Source: a bacterium
GTDB taxonomy: Bacteria > RBG-13-66-14 > B26-G2 > WVWN01
DNA: 45,834 nucleotides
Direction: 5' to 3'
Assembly: GCA_035529855.1 (NCBI GenBank)
Contig: DATKVX010000064.1
Location: forward strand, 1 to 45,834
Positions 142 through 45,834 of this stretch are shown here, piece after piece. The first letter of the stretch is position 1. Each line of letters begins with the position of its first letter. Position numbers and translations under genes: made by a program. Below the pieces are notes generated by a model, which made no database searches, was not told the DNA's origin, and saw nothing but the letters and a program-made list of their open reading frames with translations.

Positions 142-2940
142 ATGGCGGCGCCCGATACAATAAAAAAACTCGTCGACGACTTCGAACGCCTGAAGGGAGG
201 GCCCGCGCCGGATAGCTTCGACGAGGCCCAGCTCGGCACGACGTACGTCGAGCCCTTCTGGGAAGCGCTCGGGTGGGCGGTTCGCGACCCGCGCGAGGTC
301 GTGAAGGAAAAACGCGTACACCTCCGCGCCTCGACCAGGAGCGCCGACTACTGCTTTCAACTCGCGCGCAAGCCGCAGTTCATCGTCGAGGCCAAAGACT
401 ACCGCAAACGCCTCGACGACGCAGATTTCATTTTCCAAACCAAACGTTACGGTTATAACTTGCCGGTGGATTTCGGCGTCCTCACCAACTTCGCCGGGTT
501 CCGCCTCTTCGACACCGGCCTGGAGCCCGTATACGAGAACCGGGCCCGCGGCCTGTTTAAAAAGTTCGACCTACCGTATACCGAATACGAGGAACGGTGG
601 GACGAGCTCGCCGCGGTGTTCTCGCGGGAGGCCGTCGCCGCCGGCGCCCTGCGCGAGCTACTCCCCAAGGCCCGCCGCACCCGCAATAAGGAAGCCCTCG
701 ACCGGAAGTTCTTCGAACGGCTTAACGAGTGGCGCGCGGAGCTCGCCCGCAACGTCGCCCTCCGCAATAAGGACCTCGGCGTTCACGACATCAACGAGGC
801 CGTTCAGCGCATCCTCGACCGCGCGATCTTCATGCGCGTAATCGAGGACCGCGGCATCGAGGCCACCGAGCTCCTCCTCGACGCGTTGAACCGGTGGAAG
901 GTGGAAAAAGAAAAAGACCTCTACCGCTACGTCGTAGACAAGTTCCGGTACCTCGAGCCGCAGTACAACGGCGAGTTGTTCTACAAGCATTTCTCCGAGG
1001 ACTTAATGGTAGACGACAAGCAGCTTCGCGATTTCATAGAATCCCTCTACTACCCCAAGTGCCCGTACCAGTTCAACGTCGTCGGCGTCGAGATGCTGGG
1101 GACGGTCTACGAGCGGTTCCTCGGCTCCGAGATAAGACTTACGCCTTCGCACCGTGCGGTCGTTGAACCCAAGCCGGAGGTCCGCAAGGCCGGCGGCGTC
1201 TACTACACCCCCAGGTACATAGTCGACTACATCGTCGAGAACACCGTCGGCGAGTTGCTCAAGAAGTGCAAGACGCCGGCGGCGGCCGCGAAGCTCAAGA
1301 TACTGGACCCGGCCTGCGGCTCCGGCTCGTTCCTGCTGGGCGCCTTCCGGCGCCTCATCGACTGGCACGAGGATTACTTCACCGCGAACCCGGAAAAAAT
1401 CGGCAAGGGTTTGGCGGCGGCGTGTTGGCGCGACGCCGACGAGGAGAAATATCGCCTTACGGCCAGGTTCAAGGGGCAAATCCTCGTCAACAACATCTTC
1501 GGCGTGGACATAGACGACCAGGCGTGCGAGGTCACGCGGATGTCGCTGTACCTCAAGTTATTGGAGGACGTCGACGCCCAGTTCCTGATGAAGACGGCGC
1601 TCCTGCCGCCGCTCGACGCCAACGTCAAGTGCGGCAACTCGCTGATAGGGTCCGACTATTTCGACGTGGGACAGACATTCCTGTCTGTCGACGAGGACGA
1701 GCGCCGCTGCGTCAACCCGTTCGACTGGGAAGTGGAGTTCGAGGAGATAATGAAGGCCGGCGGTTTCGACGCGGTGATCGGGAACCCGCCGTATTTGAAT
1801 TTAACCGTTGGTACGTGTAGACACGACATATTGACTTACTACGATAAAAACTACGGGAGTTACCGCGCGGCCCAATCGAAAAATTTATTCGGGCTATTTA
1901 TAGAAAGGATGCTTGGTTTACTTAATAGAAGTGGTTTATTTTCGTTTATTGTACCAGAAGGCTTAGCGAGAACACGTAGTTATAAAAAAGTAAGGGAGAT
2001 TATTCATTCCGAAGGGTCGCTTAAAAACATATTAATATTCGATAAGTTCGTATTCGAAGAAGCCTATATAGGTAGTTTGGTTTTCGTTGTTACGAAAAAC
2101 GATAAAAAAGAAACTTATATCGTAGAAAGATTAAATAGCGATTTCGAAATAGATAAATCTTTTAGGATGGACTATTCATATTTAAAAGCGTCCCCGGACC
2201 TTATGTGGAATACGGAACCTGAAACCGGAGGTTCGTTACTAGTAAAAAGAATTGGGGGTGTTTTTCCCCCCGCCGAAAACCTATTTAATTTTTACAAGGG
2301 TATGGTTGTTAAAGACCGCCGGAACCACCTCCGCAAAGTACCTAAAGAAAGAGACCTCCCTTTTTTACTCGGGAATTCGTTAAAGAGATACTATTTAGAA
2401 TATAAGGATTATACGTCGTACGACGAGTTAACTATCGTAGGCGGTACTAAGGTTTTATCCAAGCACATGGAGTGTCCTAGGCTACTGGTTAGGAGAACGG
2501 GCGATTTTTTATGCGTAAGCTATACGGAAGACCCACAATTAGTAGAAAGTACGATATATATTGTTGCGGGGCCGAAGCGAAGGGAATTGCTTTATTATCT
2601 AGGGCTTTTTAATTCGAGGCTCCTTACCTTCGTAGTAAGGCAAAGGATGATCACGAACCCCCAAGCTTTCCCCCAAATACTGATGACGGATTTAAAGGAA
2701 TTGCCGTTCAAGGTGATAAACCCTTCCGTCCCCGCCGACGTCGCGCGGCACGACAAGATGGTGGCGTTGGTGGAGGAGATGCTCGAGCTGCACAAGCGCC
2801 TCGCCGCCGCCAAATCGGACGCCGACAAGCAGCGCCTCCAGCGCGCCATCGCCGCCACCGACCGCAAGATCGACGCGCTGGTCTACGTGCTGTACGGCCT
2901 GACGGAGGAAGAGATAAGGGTCGTTGAAACCGGCAAGTAA
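142..2940 (+). CDS. Type IIG restriction-modification enzyme (fused endonuclease and N6-adenine methyltransferase)
   Basis: This 932-aa protein cuts and methylates DNA with one polypeptide. The N-terminus carries a PD-(D/E)XK nuclease signature (D69, E83-A-K85 in FIVEAKDY). A helical linker follows. The gamma-type methyltransferase has motif I DPACGSGSF (389-397) for S-adenosylmethionine and catalytic motif IV NPPY (548-551). A TaqI/Eco57I-like specificity region (about 553-855) and a short coiled-coil tail complete it. Start ATG at 142 has a good ribosome site. Base composition shifts sharply just after NPPY (about 1797): the specificity region is AT-rich with TTA, ATA and AAA codons until about 2703, while both flanks are GC-rich, so that region was probably exchanged by recombination. 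Motif I and motif IV are intact, so an active methylase is likely. The recognition sequence cannot be read from the sequence. Confidence 0.9.
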   Translation: MAAPDTIKKLVDDFERLKGGPAPDSFDEAQLGTTYVEPFWEALGWAVRDPREVVKEKRVHLRASTRSADYCFQLARKPQFIVEAKDYRKRLDDADFIFQTKRYGYNLPVDFGVLTNFAGFRLFDTGLEPVYENRARGLFKKFDLPYTEYEERWDELAAVFSREAVAAGALRELLPKARRTRNKEALDRKFFERLNEWRAELARNVALRNKDLGVHDINEAVQRILDRAIFMRVIEDRGIEATELLLDALNRWKVEKEKDLYRYVVDKFRYLEPQYNGELFYKHFSEDLMVDDKQLRDFIESLYYPKCPYQFNVVGVEMLGTVYERFLGSEIRLTPSHRAVVEPKPEVRKAGGVYYTPRYIVDYIVENTVGELLKKCKTPAAAAKLKILDPACGSGSFLLGAFRRLIDWHEDYFTANPEKIGKGLAAACWRDADEEKYRLTARFKGQILVNNIFGVDIDDQACEVTRMSLYLKLLEDVDAQFLMKTALLPPLDANVKCGNSLIGSDYFDVGQTFLSVDEDERRCVNPFDWEVEFEEIMKAGGFDAVIGNPPYLNLTVGTCRHDILTYYDKNYGSYRAAQSKNLFGLFIERMLGLLNRSGLFSFIVPEGLARTRSYKKVREIIHSEGSLKNILIFDKFVFEEAYIGSLVFVVTKNDKKETYIVERLNSDFEIDKSFRMDYSYLKASPDLMWNTEPETGGSLLVKRIGGVFPPAENLFNFYKGMVVKDRRNHLRKVPKERDLPFLLGNSLKRYYLEYKDYTSYDELTIVGGTKVLSKHMECPRLLVRRTGDFLCVSYTEDPQLVESTIYIVAGPKRRELLYYLGLFNSRLLTFVVRQRMITNPQAFPQILMTDLKELPFKVINPSVPADVARHDKMVALVEEMLELHKRLAAAKSDADKQRLQRAIAATDRKIDALVYVLYGLTEEEIRVVETGK
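1670..1689. repeat. Short palindromic element inside the R-M coding sequence
   Basis: Arms GACAGACA (1670-1677) and TGTCTGTC (1682-1689) flank a TTCC loop, preceded by GTGG. In frame it encodes VGQTFLSV, in a stretch between the NSLIGSDYF motif and the NPFDWEVEF motif that is variable in the family. From memory, very similar palindromes translating to GQTFLSV occur dispersed in genomes of Planctomycetes and candidate phyla, so this looks like a REP-like unit tolerated inside a protein. The palindrome is seen; the element class is inference. Confidence 0.5.
2743..2905 (+). repeat. Copy A of a repeated 3' end (within the R-M gene)
   Basis: This GC-rich part encodes the C-terminal coiled coil of the type IIG enzyme. 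Bases 2743-2858 are identical to 4064-4179 (116 bp). Bases 2848-2905 match 3931-3988 with a single difference. Copies B and C lie downstream beyond the DUF4268 gene. Identity that includes third codon positions points to recent duplication or ongoing gene conversion. Confidence 0.9.
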
Positions 2941-21806: not shown

Positions 21807-22715
21807 ATGCGACCGAAGCGACTCGTAGATTTACACCTCCACAGCTCGTTCTCCAGCGACGGCCAATATACGCCGGCGGAGCTGGTCCGCATGGCCGCGG
21901 AGAAGGGGTTGGCCGCTGTCGCCCTTACGGACCACGACGACGTCGGCGGCCTGCCGGAGTTTATGGCCGCCGGCGCCGCGAGCGCGGTGGAAACCATCCC
22001 GGGCGTAGAGCTGACCTGCGACCTGGGCCGGCGTTGGGTGCACATCCTCGGGTATTTCATCGATTGGGAAGCGGACGCTATAACCGGGGCCATAGCCGCG
22101 TTGACCGCCGCCAGGCGGCGGCAGGCCGCGGGCCGGCTGGCGATTTTAAGGAAGCTGGGCATAGTCGTCGACGACGAGAAGCTCGCGCGGGAGGCGCGGG
22201 GCCAACCGCCGGTAGGGCCGGTCATAGGCCGCGTGGTGTTGAACGACCGGGGTAACGACGGCCACCCGCAGCTCGAGCCGCTGCGCCGGCCCCCCAAGGC
22301 TGCGGCCCCCTACTTCCACTTCGATCGCGACCTCTTGTCCCACGGCAAGCCGGCCTACTTCCCGGTGGCGCGGATGTCGCCGGCCGAGGCGGTCGAGGTT
22401 ATTCGGGCGTCGGGCGGCGCCGCCGTCTTCGCGCACCCGGGCGACAAGTTCCGCCTGCCGGAGGACGAACCGGTCTTCGCGGAATTGGCCGCGGCCGGGA
22501 TGGCCGGTATCGAGGCCTATTGTTCGTATCACGACGACGAGCAGGGGCGGGCGTTCGCGGCGCTGGCGCGTCGTCTGGGGCTCGTTGCCACCGCCGGCTC
22601 GGACTTCCACGGCCCGCTGGTCAAACCCCACGTCGAGATGGGAGACGTGAGCCATAACGACTACGCCGTCGTCGACGCCCTCCGGAGCCGCCGCCCGGCG
22701 GAAGCGGTCCGATGA
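21807..22715 (+). CDS. PHP-domain phosphoesterase (RNase AM/YciV-like)
   Basis: The 302-aa protein has the metal-binding residues of the polymerase/histidinol phosphatase superfamily: DLHLHSSFSSDG, ALTDHDDVGG, IPGVELTC, HILGYF, AVFAHPGDK and SDFHG. Best-known relatives (TrpH/YciV) act as 5'-to-3' phosphoesterases on short RNAs and 3',5'-nucleoside bisphosphates. Placement directly after truB and near nrnA fits RNA turnover. It starts at ATG 21807, and its stop overlaps the next gene by 4 nt (ATGA). Confidence 0.88.
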   Translation: MRPKRLVDLHLHSSFSSDGQYTPAELVRMAAEKGLAAVALTDHDDVGGLPEFMAAGAASAVETIPGVELTCDLGRRWVHILGYFIDWEADAITGAIAALTAARRRQAAGRLAILRKLGIVVDDEKLAREARGQPPVGPVIGRVVLNDRGNDGHPQLEPLRRPPKAAAPYFHFDRDLLSHGKPAYFPVARMSPAEAVEVIRASGGAAVFAHPGDKFRLPEDEPVFAELAAAGMAGIEAYCSYHDDEQGRAFAALARRLGLVATAGSDFHGPLVKPHVEMGDVSHNDYAVVDALRSRRPAEAVR

Positions 22716-25141
22716 GGCGCCTCGCGGGAGCGTTGCTGGTTATGGCGGCCGCGGCCGGTGCGGCGAACGGCCCGCTGGTGGCCGCGGCCGCGGACCCGTC
22801 GGCCTTGCAGTTTAACCAAAAGGTCGACCTGTATTACCTGGGCCGCGTGGGCCGGGTGCACCTGTTCTGCGGCGCGGCGGCCGGGGCGGTGGGCGACACG
22901 GTGCTGCCGCTCGCGGCCGGCCGCTTCTACTACCGCGTCGAGGGCACCCCGGCGGAGGCGCTCGCGCCGTTCGGCGAGGTCTTGCTCGAGGACGGCGGCG
23001 AAATCCTGTTGGGCCGGCAATACGGCTTCGTTTACGACAAGCCGATGAAGTCGCTTAACGCGCCGTGGCGACTCCTCGTTCCGACGCACGTAGCGGAACC
23101 CGCAGCCCGGCCGGCGCCGCCGCTGCCCGCAGCCGACGGTCGCATTCAATACCTGCTTAGCCGCATAAGAACCGAAGACATCAAAGAGGAGCTCGGCGCG
23201 TTGACGGCGTTCCCCACGCGGTATTCCTTTTCGCCATACATGGAGAAGGCCGCGGCTTTCCTCCACGACCGCCTTTCCTCCTACGGCCTGGCGCCGCGCT
23301 ACGACGTCTTCATTACGGCCCACGACCTCGACTCATGCTTCTTCCTCCCCGGCACGAAGCGGGGGTGGGTGGTCGGGGCTTCGGGGCTCATCTTGCGCAC
23401 CGACGACGGCGGCTCGAGCTGGGTCATACAGAAGAGCGGTACCGAAGAGGAACTGGTCGACGTCTTCTTCGTCGACCAAACGTACGGGTGGATAGTAGGC
23501 GCGAACGGGACCGTCCTCAAGACCGCGGACGGCGGCTCGAGCTGGCGCCGCATGCCCAAGCCGACCGACCGCCACCTCACCGGCGTCCACTTCGTAAGCC
23601 GGCTCGAGGGCTGGGCCTGTGGCACGGGGGGCGTTATCCTGCACACCGACGACGGCGGCTCAAGCTGGGAGCGGCAGCCGAGCGGCATCAGCGATACCCT
23701 CTTCGAGATCCAGTTTCTCGACGACCGGTGCGGTTACGCCGTGGGGTGGCACGGCGAGGTCCGGCGGACCGACGACGGCGGCGCGACGTGGGTACGGCGC
23801 CGGACGCCCTTCTCGGACCCGCAGTCGCCGGCGGAGGTCGTCGAGCTGACGGGCCTAAGCTTCATATCGCGGGACGAAGGTTGGGTGGTCGGCAACCATT
23901 ACGACGTCATCCTGCACACCGACGACGGCGGCTCGAGCTGGGAGGTGCAGCGGTACGACGTCGCGAACGGCACGTATCTGGGCGCGGTCCATTTCTTCGA
24001 CGACATGACGGGCGTGGCGGTAGGCGGCGGCGAGAAGGGCGCGGCGTTCCGGACGACGGACGGCGGCGCGAGCTGGCGCAAGGTCGACATACCCGCCGAC
24101 TTCCCCCTTACCGGGATATCCTTCGCCTCGACGAGCGAGGGTTGGGCGTGCGGCTACGGCTCGTGCGTCGACTACACCGCGGACGGGGGCTCGAGCTGGC
24201 TCAACTTACGCGACAACTTGCCCGAGGAACTCGGTTGGAAGAACGTCGTGTGCGACGTCCCGGGCCGTCGGGAACCGGACGAGCAGTACCTCGTTGTCGC
24301 TCACTACGACAGCATCTCGGACGAGCCGCAACGTCTGGCCCCCGGCGCGGACGACAACGGCTCGGGAACGGTAGCGGCGCTCGCGGTGGCGCGGGCGCTG
24401 GCGACCTCCCGCCTAGAGCGCACGGTTCGGATTATACTTTTCGCCGGCGAAGAGCAGGGCCTGGTGGGCAGCCGCGATTACGCGCGGCGCGTCAAAAGCC
24501 GGGGCGACGACGTCCGCGCGGTGTGGAACATGGACATGGTGGGGTACGTCGGCGACGGCCCCCGCGACGCGCGGTTGTATTACAAAGACGACTCGAGGTG
24601 GATGTATGAGGCCGGGGCGCGCGCGAGCCGGCTGTACGTGCCGGAGCTGATGCTCGCCGGCGAGAACAACCCGTTCAAAGCCAACAGCGACCACTACTCC
24701 TTCTGGCAGCAGGGCTACGCCGCCGCGTACCTCAACGAGGACTCGAGCGGCGGCGGGTATCCCCACTACCACAAGACTACCGATACGATGGACCACCTGG
24801 ACCTGCCGTTCGTCGCCGCGAACGCGCGGCTGGCCGCCGCGACCGTGGCGGGATGGGCGGGCTTGATGGACGAAGGGCCGGCGCTGTCGCTGGACGCGGT
24901 CCGCGTTTACCCCAACCCCTACAAACCGTCGGCGTCGTCGGCGCGGGGCGTCACGTTCGACAACGTACCCTCGGAGGCCGCGATAAGCGTCTACAACCTC
25001 GCCGGCGACCGCGTGGCCGAGGGAAGGCCCGACTCGGGCGGCGTATGGGCGTGGGGCGCGGACGTGGCATCGGGGGTTTACCTATACGTTATGGAGCGCG
25101 ACGGGGAGAAGCGTGTGGGGAAGGTCGCGATTGTTAAATAA
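22712..25141 (+). CDS. Secreted M28 metallopeptidase with an inserted propeller and C-terminal Ig module
   Basis: This is an 809-aa exported protein. Residues 1-18 form a signal peptide. The N-terminal helices of an M28 peptidase (about 150-208, SPYMEKAAAFLHDRLSSYGL) are interrupted by seven YCF48/BNR-like repeats (about 209-515), each ending in a T-x-D-G-G-[SA]-[ST]-W motif. The catalytic core resumes with VVAHYDSISDE (metal ligand H531), GADDNGSGT and LFAGEEQGLVGS. The end (VYPNPYKPS to GKVAIVK) is a FlgD/T9SS-type Ig module. This implies a zinc aminopeptidase displayed or secreted outside the cell. ATG 22712 overlaps the PHP gene; similarity in the overlap is absent, so the start is moderately certain. 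Confidence 0.85.
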   Translation: MRRLAGALLVMAAAAGAANGPLVAAAADPSALQFNQKVDLYYLGRVGRVHLFCGAAAGAVGDTVLPLAAGRFYYRVEGTPAEALAPFGEVLLEDGGEILLGRQYGFVYDKPMKSLNAPWRLLVPTHVAEPAARPAPPLPAADGRIQYLLSRIRTEDIKEELGALTAFPTRYSFSPYMEKAAAFLHDRLSSYGLAPRYDVFITAHDLDSCFFLPGTKRGWVVGASGLILRTDDGGSSWVIQKSGTEEELVDVFFVDQTYGWIVGANGTVLKTADGGSSWRRMPKPTDRHLTGVHFVSRLEGWACGTGGVILHTDDGGSSWERQPSGISDTLFEIQFLDDRCGYAVGWHGEVRRTDDGGATWVRRRTPFSDPQSPAEVVELTGLSFISRDEGWVVGNHYDVILHTDDGGSSWEVQRYDVANGTYLGAVHFFDDMTGVAVGGGEKGAAFRTTDGGASWRKVDIPADFPLTGISFASTSEGWACGYGSCVDYTADGGSSWLNLRDNLPEELGWKNVVCDVPGRREPDEQYLVVAHYDSISDEPQRLAPGADDNGSGTVAALAVARALATSRLERTVRIILFAGEEQGLVGSRDYARRVKSRGDDVRAVWNMDMVGYVGDGPRDARLYYKDDSRWMYEAGARASRLYVPELMLAGENNPFKANSDHYSFWQQGYAAAYLNEDSSGGGYPHYHKTTDTMDHLDLPFVAANARLAAATVAGWAGLMDEGPALSLDAVRVYPNPYKPSASSARGVTFDNVPSEAAISVYNLAGDRVAEGRPDSGGVWAWGADVASGVYLYVMERDGEKRVGKVAIVK

Positions 25142-28762: not shown

Positions 28763-31969
<3,207 letters not shown>

Positions 31970-43316: not shown

Positions 43317-43592
43317 ATGCCGACGATAACTGTTGAGGGGCCGCCCATACCGGTCGAAAAGAAACGCGACCTCGCGGAAGGGCTTACCAAAGCGGCCGCG
43401 GCCGCGTACGAGGATATACCGACGGAAGCTATTATCGTTTTAATCCGGGAGAACGAGGCCGAGAACGTGGGCGTGGGAGGCGAGTTGCTTTGCGACCGTC
43501 GGGCCAAGGGCGCGGGCCAGAAGGGCGCCGGTCAAAGCGGCGCAGGCCAGAGCGGCGCGGGTCAGAAGGGCGCAGGCGAGAAAAGTGGCTAG
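43317..43592 (+). CDS. 4-oxalocrotonate tautomerase-like protein with a repeat tail
   Basis: The 91-aa protein begins MPTITVEGPPIPVEKKRDLAEGLTKA, so Pro2 becomes the catalytic N-terminal proline after methionine removal, as in the tautomerase superfamily. The family core ends near residue 62. The tail is five units of five residues (GAGQK, GAGQS, GAGQS, GAGQK, GAGEK) followed by SG, encoded by five 15-bp repeats. The tail is absent from ordinary tautomerases of 60-70 aa. AGGAG (43304-43308) serves ATG 43317. Substrate unknown. Confidence 0.85.
   Translation: MPTITVEGPPIPVEKKRDLAEGLTKAAAAAYEDIPTEAIIVLIRENEAENVGVGGELLCDRRAKGAGQKGAGQSGAGQSGAGQKGAGEKSG
43509..43583 (+). repeat. Five 15-bp tandem repeats in the tautomerase tail
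   Basis: Five in-frame copies of a 15-bp unit (GGC-GCN-GGY-CAR/GAG-AAR/AGC) follow codon 64. Copies differ mainly at third positions, so they are not the newest possible expansion. Tandem repeats with a unit divisible by three can change copy number by slippage without shifting the frame. Confidence 0.95.
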
Positions 43593-43721: not shown

Positions 43722-44498
43722 GTGAAAAAAGTACTATTGTCCGGCGTTATCCTGGCCGTGACGGCCGGCGCGGCGTTCGCCGATTTGGGCGACGTCGTCG
43801 CCTCTTTCACCGCGCCTTATCGCGCCCCGATCGCGTTGGCCCACGCCAACAACGCCACGCAAATGTGGCTGTTCTGCAACCAAAATACGAGCGGCTGGCG
43901 GATCTTCCTGGTCCACCATACCACGGGCTCCATATATAGTTCGTTCGTCTCTCCTTGCGCCGAGTATACGCGGGGATTAACGTACGAGGACCCGGGCTAC
44001 CTGTGGACCGGCAACTTCAACAACCGGCGCGTATACCGATGCCGGTCCGTCAACGGGAGCGTGCTGTATTCCTGGGCCGCGAACCACGCCGTCTCGGGTC
44101 TGGCGCTGAAGGCGCGCGGCGACGGCGGCGTGAATCATGACGGCCTATTCGTGAACGCTGGCACGACGACCTGGCGCCACCGGCCGAGCGACGGCAGCAT
44201 CATATCCTCCTTTTCCTATACCCCCGCCTTCTACGGGGACAACGCCTGGGACTGGCGGAACGAACTCGTATGGGGAGGGGACGCGAACGTCAACTACGTA
44301 TACGGGTGCACGACCGCGGGTACGGTTGCGGCGTCCTTCGCTTCCCCGGCCACCAATCCGCAGGGCATGTGCTACTACGGCGAATACTTGTGGGTCGGGG
44401 TGAACTCCACTCCGGATTACGTGTACGAGGTCCATTGCCCGAATAACTTGGGGGTTGCGCCCGCGTCGCTGGGCCGCGTGAAGGCGTTGTTCCGTTAA
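43722..44498 (+). CDS. Secreted propeller-like protein with a shared C-terminal tail
   Basis: GTG 43722 gives a 258-aa protein with a signal peptide (MKKVLLSGVILAVTAGAAFA) and GGAAGGGA just upstream. The rest consists of about five loosely repeated units (GSI-x-SSF, YLWTGN, VYRC, GSVLYSW, YLWVGVN) like a small beta-propeller or sugar-binding repeat. It has several cysteines, as in exported proteins. The C-terminus (VAPASLGRVKALFR) matches the tail of the NHL protein at the window's right end although the rest of the two proteins is dissimilar. Function unknown; an extracellular or cell-surface role is likely. Confidence 0.7.
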   Translation: MKKVLLSGVILAVTAGAAFADLGDVVASFTAPYRAPIALAHANNATQMWLFCNQNTSGWRIFLVHHTTGSIYSSFVSPCAEYTRGLTYEDPGYLWTGNFNNRRVYRCRSVNGSVLYSWAANHAVSGLALKARGDGGVNHDGLFVNAGTTTWRHRPSDGSIISSFSYTPAFYGDNAWDWRNELVWGGDANVNYVYGCTTAGTVAASFASPATNPQGMCYYGEYLWVGVNSTPDYVYEVHCPNNLGVAPASLGRVKALFR

Positions 44499-44518
44499 AA
44501 TGCGAAATACAAGATATG

Positions 44519-44547
44519 AACGGGTCGCCGCCAAGGGGGCCCGTTTT
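44519..44547 (+). terminator. Terminator after the propeller-like gene
   Basis: AACGGGTC (44519-44526) pairs with GGCCCGTT (44538-44545), with one G-U pair, and runs into TTTT (44544-44547). It lies about 20 nt after the stop at 44498. Confidence 0.65.
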
Positions 44548-44622
44548 AATCGCGGGCCTCGGCTAAGTTATGGCCTTTTGTTATGAGAATATAACTGATA
44601 TTGTCAAGTATATATATTTTCC

Positions 44623-44651
44623 TTGACTATGTTACGGCTTTGTTCAATAAT
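44623..44651 (+). promoter_or_regulatory. Promoter candidate upstream of the NHL gene
   Basis: TTGACT (44623-44628) and AATAAT (44646-44651) are 17 nt apart next to an AT tract, giving a start near 44658. The resulting leader to the NHL ATG (44873) would be over 200 nt and would include the hairpin at 44792-44822. Confidence 0.55.
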
Positions 44652-44791
44652 GGTTCACGAAGAGTTCGAAGCGCTCGGCGACGAACCGATGTGCGATGTT
44701 GGCGGGGAGCCGGTATGCCGCACGTTGGGAAACGAGGGGAACGATATCGCGCGACCGCCGACGGGGCCGTAGTTCCGGGATAGTAAACAAC

Positions 44792-44822
44792 ACCCGAGTC
44801 GGGCCTCGTGCGCCACTCGGGT
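44792..44822 (+). promoter_or_regulatory. Hairpin in the leader of the NHL gene
   Basis: ACCCGAGT (44792-44799) pairs perfectly with ACTCGGGT (44815-44822). It is followed by an ATTTCATTATTATATTTA tract that is U-rich but interrupted, so it could work as a weak terminator or attenuator. It lies 50 nt before the NHL start codon. Confidence 0.5.
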
Positions 44823-44872
44823 ATTTCATTATTATATTTAATGCCCTGAGTTTAGGGCGGAAGGAGAGCGAA

Positions 44873-45834
44873 ATGAAGAGGGCGGTAATTTTCGCGGCCG
44901 TCACGGCGCTCGTCGCGGCCAGCGCGGCCTACGGCGTCTGGGTCTACGAGGGCAAGTGGGGCGAGTTCGGCACCGGCGAAGGCCAATTCTACGGCGCCTG
45001 TGACGTCGCCGTCGCGCCCAACGGCCGCGTCTACGTGGTCGATAACGGAAACGACCGAATTCAGTATTTCTCTCCGACGGGTTCGTACCGCGGCAAGTTC
45101 GGCAAATACGGCTCGGGCAACGGGGAGTTCAGGCAACCTGGTGGCGTAGCGGTCGCCCCCAACGCCAACGTCTACGTCGCCGACACGTGTAACGACCGCA
45201 TCCAATACTTCACCGCGAGCGGGTCCTTCCTCGGCAAGTGGGGCTCGTCGGGCTCGGGCAACGGCCAATTCCATTGGCCGTTAGACGTCGCTTTCGCGCC
45301 TGGCGGCAACGTCTACGTCGCCGATATCGGTAACTGCCGCATCCAATACCTCACGCCTGCGGGTTCGTTCCTCGGCAAGTGGGGCAAGGTCGGGTCCGGC
45401 GACGGCGAATTCCAGCGCATCGCCGGCGTCGCCATTCACCCCAACGGTCACGTCTACGTCGTCGATGTCTATAGCAACCGTATTCAATACTTCACGCGGA
45501 CCGGTTCCTTTCTGGGGAAGTTCGGTTCGCGCGGCTCGGGCGACGGGCAATTCTTACAGCCTTGCGGAATTGGCGTAGGGGATAACGGCACGGTTTACGT
45601 TGCGGACACGACCAATTGCCGCATCCAATATTTCACCCCGAGTGGTTCCTTCCTGGGCAAGTGGGGTTCGATGGGTAGCGGTAGCGGCTACTTCAATAGA
45701 CCCGTCGCCGTTGATAAAAACTCGGCGACCAATAGGGTTTACGTCGCCGAAGTCGAGAACTGCCGCGTCCAATATTTCCGCTGGTCCCCCCCGGCGGTAG
45801 CGCCCGCCTCCCTCGGCCGCGTGAAGGCGCTGTT
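44873..45834 (+). CDS. Secreted NHL-repeat six-bladed propeller protein (runs off the window)
   Basis: ATG 44873 follows AAGGAG (44861-44866). A signal peptide (KRAVIFAAVTALVAASAAYG) precedes six NHL repeats of about 47 residues, each with the pattern GKWGSxGSGxGQF, GVAVAPNGxVYVAD, NDRIQYFTxxGSFL. Six units make a closed propeller, a scaffold that binds proteins or glycans outside the cell. After the last blade the protein ends with VAPASLGRVKAL; the window stops two codons or so before the likely end. The repeats are highly alike at the DNA level. The same tail ends the gene at 43722-44498. Confidence 0.85.
   Translation, partial: MKRAVIFAAVTALVAASAAYGVWVYEGKWGEFGTGEGQFYGACDVAVAPNGRVYVVDNGNDRIQYFSPTGSYRGKFGKYGSGNGEFRQPGGVAVAPNANVYVADTCNDRIQYFTASGSFLGKWGSSGSGNGQFHWPLDVAFAPGGNVYVADIGNCRIQYLTPAGSFLGKWGKVGSGDGEFQRIAGVAIHPNGHVYVVDVYSNRIQYFTRTGSFLGKFGSRGSGDGQFLQPCGIGVGDNGTVYVADTTNCRIQYFTPSGSFLGKWGSMGSGSGYFNRPVAVDKNSATNRVYVAEVENCRVQYFRWSPPAVAPASLGRVKAL

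What the first reader, a model, noticed from the sequence alone, without database searches (positions are those of the whole stretch)
44450..45834. Shared C-terminal tail on two unlike secreted propeller proteins: candidate sorting signal
The 258-aa protein ends VAPASLGRVKALFR; the NHL protein reaches VAPASLGRVKAL at the window edge. The preceding domains are unrelated, both have signal peptides, and the codons differ in the tail (GCGTCGCTGGGC against GCCTCCCTCGGC). Selection on the peptide rather than recent duplication is the likely cause. A short conserved C-terminus on diverse exported proteins is the hallmark of a dedicated export or anchoring system (like LPXTG, PEP-CTERM or T9SS tags). 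This may be an undescribed one; the M28 protein has a different, T9SS-like end.
Basis: partly seen in the sequence, partly recalled or inferred. Interest (0 to 1): 0.7.

Follow-up and report, generated by a model that had tools for sequence, protein, structure and literature searches.

The report
Short C-terminal export tag, many proteins

Summary
A DNA pattern for G-x-[IV]-K-A-x-[FY]-[RKHQNS]-stop hits 70 places in this 2.6-Mb genome and 500 in the 14 held genomes of the phylum (Candidatus Coatesbacteria), with zero hits for the reversed control. A scan of about 85,000 species finds the SWGxIKAx[FY]R form in Eisenbacteria, Effluviviaceae, Krumholzibacteriia, Fermentibacteria and Latescibacterota too. 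The tail ends signal-peptide proteins of unrelated folds. Conservation starts about 15 residues before the stop and ends at it, with varied synonymous codons, so selection is on the peptide. In the NHL model the tail lies outside the propeller.

All 14 genomes carry type IX secretion genes (SprA, PorV, PorU-like) and ordinary type A CTD cargo. One passenger family ends in the tail in some members and in a type A CTD or CTD-like domain in the rest. Tail and CTD never co-occur (0 of 265). Best explanation: a minimal C-terminal signal for a type IX-like pathway, distinct from known type A, B, C and short CTDs. Dependence on that pathway is inferred, not shown.

The parts
43722..44498 (+). 258-aa exported repeat protein carrying the tail
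   Evidence: GTG start, signal peptide MKKVLLSGVILAVTAGAAFA; 13 paralogues in A3; no Pfam or NCBIfam family
43722..43781 (+). Signal peptide, approximate extent
   Evidence: heuristic; sequence MKKVLLSGVILAVTAGAAFA
44454..44495 (+). C-terminal tail VAPASLGRVKALFR
44873..45834 (+). NHL 6-bladed propeller protein with signal peptide; cut by the contig end
   Evidence: AlphaFold2 model, mean pLDDT 83, last strand ends at residue 305; Foldseek best match the NHL domain of Drosophila Thin, E 1e-30
45797..45834 (+). C-terminal tail VAPASLGRVKAL..., truncated by the contig end
   Evidence: non-strand, low-pLDDT segment after the propeller
22712..25141 (+). Ycf48-like plus M28 peptidase protein whose C-terminus is type IX CTD-like: the alternative signal in the same window
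   Evidence: NF052228 PorZ C-terminal match, residues 726-809, E 2.6e-6; NF045908 LapA

Best explanation
The tail is a short C-terminal sorting signal, consensus V-[AE]-P-x-S-[LWFV]-G-x-[IV]-K-A-[LM]-[FY]-[RK]-stop, about 12-15 residues long. It is carried by exported proteins that cross the inner membrane through a Sec signal peptide. Shown: it is peptide-selected, modular, ends dozens of unrelated exported proteins per genome, and stands in place of a type A CTD on members of the same passenger family. Inferred: the tail is read by the type IX outer-membrane machinery (SprA channel with one of the PorV-family proteins), so it works as a minimal CTD that reduces the signal to a motif E-like end with a conserved lysine and a terminal basic residue. 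Whether it is then cleaved, or linked to the surface by a PorU-like protein, is unknown.
For: (1) 70 tails in this genome, 1-113 in every genome of the phylum, 0 control hits. (2) Sharp conservation boundary at about residue -15, none after the stop, varied synonymous codons. (3) 185 of 207 complete tail ORFs of at least 200 aa have a signal-peptide-like start. (4) SprA, PorV family (6-14 per genome), PorU-like and TIGR04183 CTD matches are in all 14 genomes; SprA is in 25 of 27 tail-bearing genomes reached through the global scan. (5) Signal swap: a G003 tail protein and a G000 CTD protein share 36% identity over 318 residues from the signal peptide on; in that family 7 homologues end in the tail, 7 in a clear CTD, 8 run into a weaker CTD-like end (4 of these cut by the locus end inside it), and none with a complete C-terminus lacks both. 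Two Fermentibacteria tail proteins carry the spacer domain that precedes the CTD in about 15 CTD proteins, then the tail instead. (6) Tail and CTD never occur on one ORF (0 of 265). (7) 88% of tails and 81% of CTDs end in K or R, against 22% of other long ORFs. (8) In P. gingivalis the last 13 CTD residues with the motif E lysines are required, and the last 22 residues of HBP35 suffice to secrete GFP (PMC10202324).
Against: No sequence homology between tail and CTD is detectable (hhalign probability 0.3%), and the tail has no GxY motif D. SprA-bearing genomes with few or no tails are common (in one other phylum 25 of 64 genomes have any hit, 63 of 64 have SprA), so T9SS does not require the tail, and co-occurrence could reflect shared ancestry of these phyla. 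One tail-bearing Desulfobacterales MAG and one small Eisenbacteria MAG show no SprA. Tail passengers are not clearly enriched for CTD-passenger homologues compared with other signal-peptide proteins (8 of 187 against 6 of 250). No direct experiment exists.
Confidence: 0.6

Rival explanations
1. The tail is the address tag of a separate, undescribed export or surface-anchoring system that coexists with type IX secretion in these phyla; an unidentified receptor or transpeptidase reads the last 12-15 residues.
For: No sequence similarity to known CTDs; no NCBIfam or Pfam model; many SprA genomes lack tails; two tail genomes show no SprA.
Against: Swap with type A CTD on the same passenger family with no complete homologue lacking both; no specific partner family near tail genes; no membrane segment for a sortase or exosortase route.
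Confidence: 0.25
2. The tail is not an export signal but a docking motif: a free C-terminal peptide that binds a common envelope or surface partner after export by another route.
For: The tail is short, free and outside the fold; some NHL propellers exist without it.
Against: Replacement of the CTD export signal by the tail on homologous passengers fits an export role better; otherwise those tail-bearing homologues would lack an outer-membrane signal.
Confidence: 0.12
3. A repeated DNA element or recent duplication makes the 3' ends look alike; no function.
For: Some tails share identical DNA (e.g. GGCCGCGTGAAGGCGTTGTTCCGGTAG repeatedly), contigs break in tails, and orphan tails occur.
Against: Synonymous codons vary widely, nothing is conserved past the stop, and the motif persists across phyla at peptide level.
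Confidence: 0.02

Closest known systems
Type IX secretion system type A CTD (TIGR04183 / PF18962)
   Same: Extreme C-terminal sorting signal on signal-peptide proteins; conserved lysine and terminal basic residue; same genomes; interchangeable on the same passenger family
   Different: About 12-15 residues against 70-85; no beta-sandwich, no GxY motif D; no detectable homology
Short CTDs of Prevotella intermedia (PMC11969387)
   Same: Shortened type IX signal alongside long CTDs in one organism
   Different: Those are 40-55 residues with motifs B, D and E and three strands; the tail has none of these except a motif E-like basic end
Type B and type C type IX CTDs (PMC10202324)
   Same: C-terminal type IX signals different in sequence from type A
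   Different: About 100 residues or more; five motifs in type B
PEP-CTERM/exosortase and LPXTG/sortase signals
   Same: Short conserved C-terminal motif on diverse exported proteins
   Different: Those need a hydrophobic membrane segment followed by basic residues after the motif (own knowledge); the tail ends at the protein's last residue and has no such segment

Membership tests
Type IX type A CTD | Match to TIGR04183 at the C-terminus | tested here: not met
   No TIGR04183 hit in 44 tail proteins at E up to 1; 0 of 265 tail ORFs hit a local CTD model
Type IX type A CTD | Conserved basic residues at the very C-terminus (motif E) | tested here: met
   88% terminal K/R in tails, 81% in CTDs, 22% in other long ORFs; lysine at -5 was fixed by the search pattern, but recurs in the independent check except for two K-to-R cases
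Type IX type A CTD | Motif D GxY | tested here: not met
   No such motif in the conserved block
Type IX secretion cargo (functional class) | Sec signal peptide | tested here: met
   185 of 207 complete tail ORFs (heuristic)
Type IX secretion cargo (functional class) | Genome encodes SprA, PorV and PorU | tested here: met
   SprA, PorV-family and PorU-like matches in all 14 genomes; the PorU-like match is over the curated cut-off in only 2 of 14, with PorV-family genes beside it
Type IX secretion cargo (functional class) | Export depends on the type IX machinery | not testable with these tools
   Needs a mutant or binding experiment
P. intermedia short CTD | 40-55 residues with motifs B, D and E | tested here: not met
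   Conserved block is about 15 residues against the published description
Sortase/exosortase substrate (LPXTG, PEP-CTERM) | Motif followed by membrane segment and basic cluster | tested here: not met
   No residues follow the motif and no hydrophobic stretch is present

The most novel reading that the evidence does not exclude
A dedicated, undescribed outer-membrane export and/or anchoring pathway, conserved across Coatesbacteria, Eisenbacteria, Krumholzibacteriia, Fermentibacteria and Latescibacterota, reads a roughly 14-residue free C-terminal peptide and is mechanistically separate from the type IX system.
Probability: 0.25. Interest if true: 0.9.

Novelty: new variant of a known kind. Interest (0 to 1): 0.74.

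Why it matters
C-terminal sorting tags are how a proteome's surface and secreted part can be read from sequence. This tag marks from a few to over 100 proteins per genome in several uncultured phyla and is absent from Pfam, NCBIfam and the papers searched, so a large share of their exported proteins is at present unlabelled. If the type IX system reads it, it would be far shorter than the natural CTDs described in the papers read, and would directly test which part of a CTD is needed for recognition, given that the last 13-22 residues matter in P. gingivalis (PMC10202324).

Tried and rejected
DNA repeat or mobile element: rejected on codon diversity and no conservation past the stop. Tail as part of the propeller: rejected (NHL propellers without tail). 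Single-sequence model of the 258-aa protein was useless (pLDDT 33). hhalign of tail against CTD: no signal. Neighbour scan for a sortase, exosortase or dedicated transporter: nothing recurrent among the 25 top families apart from NHL, TPR and ABC/LptFG genes; one C25 peptidase gene lies beside a tail gene, not a pattern. Enrichment of CTD-passenger homologues among tail proteins: weak, not significant in the signal-peptide subset. Paper searches for the motif or for type IX secretion in these phyla: nothing.

Full report
Observation. The 258-aa protein (43722-44498) ends VAPASLGRVKALFR, and the NHL protein starting at 44873 reads VAPASLGRVKAL where the window ends. The window is a whole contig (G000:C64, 45,834 bases), which explains the truncation.

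Extent. The pattern GGNNNNRTNAARGCNNNNTWYMRNTRR gives 70 hits in the 2.62-Mb genome and none for the reversed control. It gives hits in all 14 held genomes of the phylum, 500 in total, again with no control hits; counts are highest in the window's genus (70-113) and low in one distant family (1-8). G010 of this phylum and G030, reached through a contig titled Candidatus Coatesbacteria (L130), give the same SprA hits at the same coordinates, so the phylum is Candidatus Coatesbacteria. A scan of about 85,000 species genomes with a strict form of the motif ([TS..]-S-W-G-x-I-K-A-x-[FY]-x-stop) gave 65 stretches. Nearly all read as C-termini of proteins, many with a visible signal peptide, from Eisenbacteria, Effluviviaceae, Krumholzibacteriia, Fermentibacteria, Latescibacterota and Coatesbacteria. 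Twenty-seven of those genomes hold 1-40 tails each, controls 0.

Anatomy. Over 69 tails of this genome, information rises abruptly at residues -15/-14, and the nucleotides after the stop are near random. Codons vary freely at each position: all four Gly and Ala codons, all six Arg and both Lys codons at the last residue. So the constraint is on the peptide. G, [IV], K, A and [FY] were imposed by the pattern. An independent anchor (P-x-[STN]-x-G plus seven residues at ORF ends) found 46 ORFs in the held loci, all recognisable tails, 14 of them variants such as KCLFK, KSLYR, RALFK or KALFE. Across phyla the consensus is V-E/A-P-x-S-W/L-G-x-I/V-K-A-L/M-F/Y-R. Of 207 complete tail ORFs of at least 200 aa, 185 have a signal-peptide-like start. 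Passengers include NHL propellers, the GSVxxSF family, PD40/TolB-like, SGNH-like, DNRLRE-like and beta-helix-like proteins (the last three by eye). In 44 aligned tail proteins of this genome the only invariant columns are P, S, G, K and A of the tail. The NHL model (mean pLDDT 83) closes its propeller at residue 305, and the tail is an unstructured extension. It matches solved NHL domains. NHL propellers without the tail also exist. The tail is therefore a detachable module.

Machinery. All 14 genomes have SprA matches (12 over the curated cut-off), PorV-family proteins (6-14 per genome, each genome with at least one over the cut-off), PorU-like matches (2 genomes over the cut-off; large ORFs beside PorV-family genes) and 23-67 TIGR04183 CTDs. 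SprA matches are in 25 of 27 tail genomes elsewhere. In another phylum (64 genomes) SprA is nearly universal but tails are sparse, so SprA does not imply the tail.

Signal swap. No ORF carries both signals (0 of 265). A tail protein of G003 and a CTD protein of G000 (510-aa ORF) share 36% identity over 318 residues starting at the signal peptide. The first then ends in VPSSIGRVKALYK, the second continues into a spacer and a type A CTD. A search for this passenger in the 14 genomes gave 7 distinct homologues that end in the tail, 7 in a clear CTD (E below 1e-20) and 8 that run into a weaker CTD-like end (all 8 lie beside PorV-family genes; 4 are cut by the locus end inside that domain). None with a complete C-terminus lacks both. 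In Fermentibacteria, two tail proteins carry the spacer domain that precedes the CTD in about 15 CTD proteins, with the tail in the CTD's place. A broader enrichment test with only 65 CTD proteins was weak, so the case rests on these families.

Explanation. The most economical reading is a minimal C-terminal signal read by type IX machinery. Published work says the last 13 CTD residues with the motif E lysines are needed and the last 22 residues of HBP35 suffice for GFP secretion (PMC10202324). Tails and CTDs share the basic end. The step from swap to shared machinery is inference. A separate system remains possible (about 0.25).

Novelty. No Pfam or NCBIfam family covers the tail, and no paper with the motif or with type IX secretion in Eisenbacteria was found in the held library. 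Known type IX signals are types A, B and C and the 40-55-residue short CTDs of P. intermedia. The tail is a new variant of C-terminal sorting signal.

Noticed in passing
Window end 45834; G000:C54:39162-39189; G000:C2:3085-3111: Contigs end in or right after a tail, and C54 and C2 share the same protein end: tail DNA repeats apparently break the assembly.
   Followed up: partly
L060 (- strand), L042:11532 and 11650 (+), L032:3360 and 3620 (+), L129:7794 and 7863 (+): Orphan or tandem tails lie 69-260 nt downstream of a tail-bearing gene with little or no passenger, suggesting truncation or recombination between tail genes.
   Followed up: partly
L038:13123-14886 (+) beside tail gene L038:11553-12566: A PorV-family barrel fused to TPR repeats lies 560 nt downstream of a tail-bearing NHL gene; PorV-family proteins number 6-14 per genome in this phylum.
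   Followed up: partly
L035:3382-5793 (-): A C25 (gingipain-type) peptidase with propeptide lies 11 nt upstream of a tail-bearing gene on the same strand.
   Followed up: no
window 28763-31969 (-): SecA of 1068 aa whose DEAD domain match spans residues 5-566 for 290 profile positions, implying a large insertion.
   Followed up: no
window 43317-43592 (+): Tautomerase (4-OT type) with a repetitive GAGQ[KS] C-terminal extension.
   Followed up: no
window 142-2940 (+): Eco57I/PglX-like adenine methyltransferase with a TaqI-type specificity domain, possibly a defence locus.
   Followed up: no
G000, G004, G005, G006: NHL propellers are hugely expanded in the window's genus (108-152 hits per genome against 3-22 in other genera).
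   Followed up: no
L104:844-1737 (G015): A tail protein on a 4.6-kb contig of a Desulfobacterales MAG with no SprA hit; misbinning possible, not settled.
   Followed up: partly
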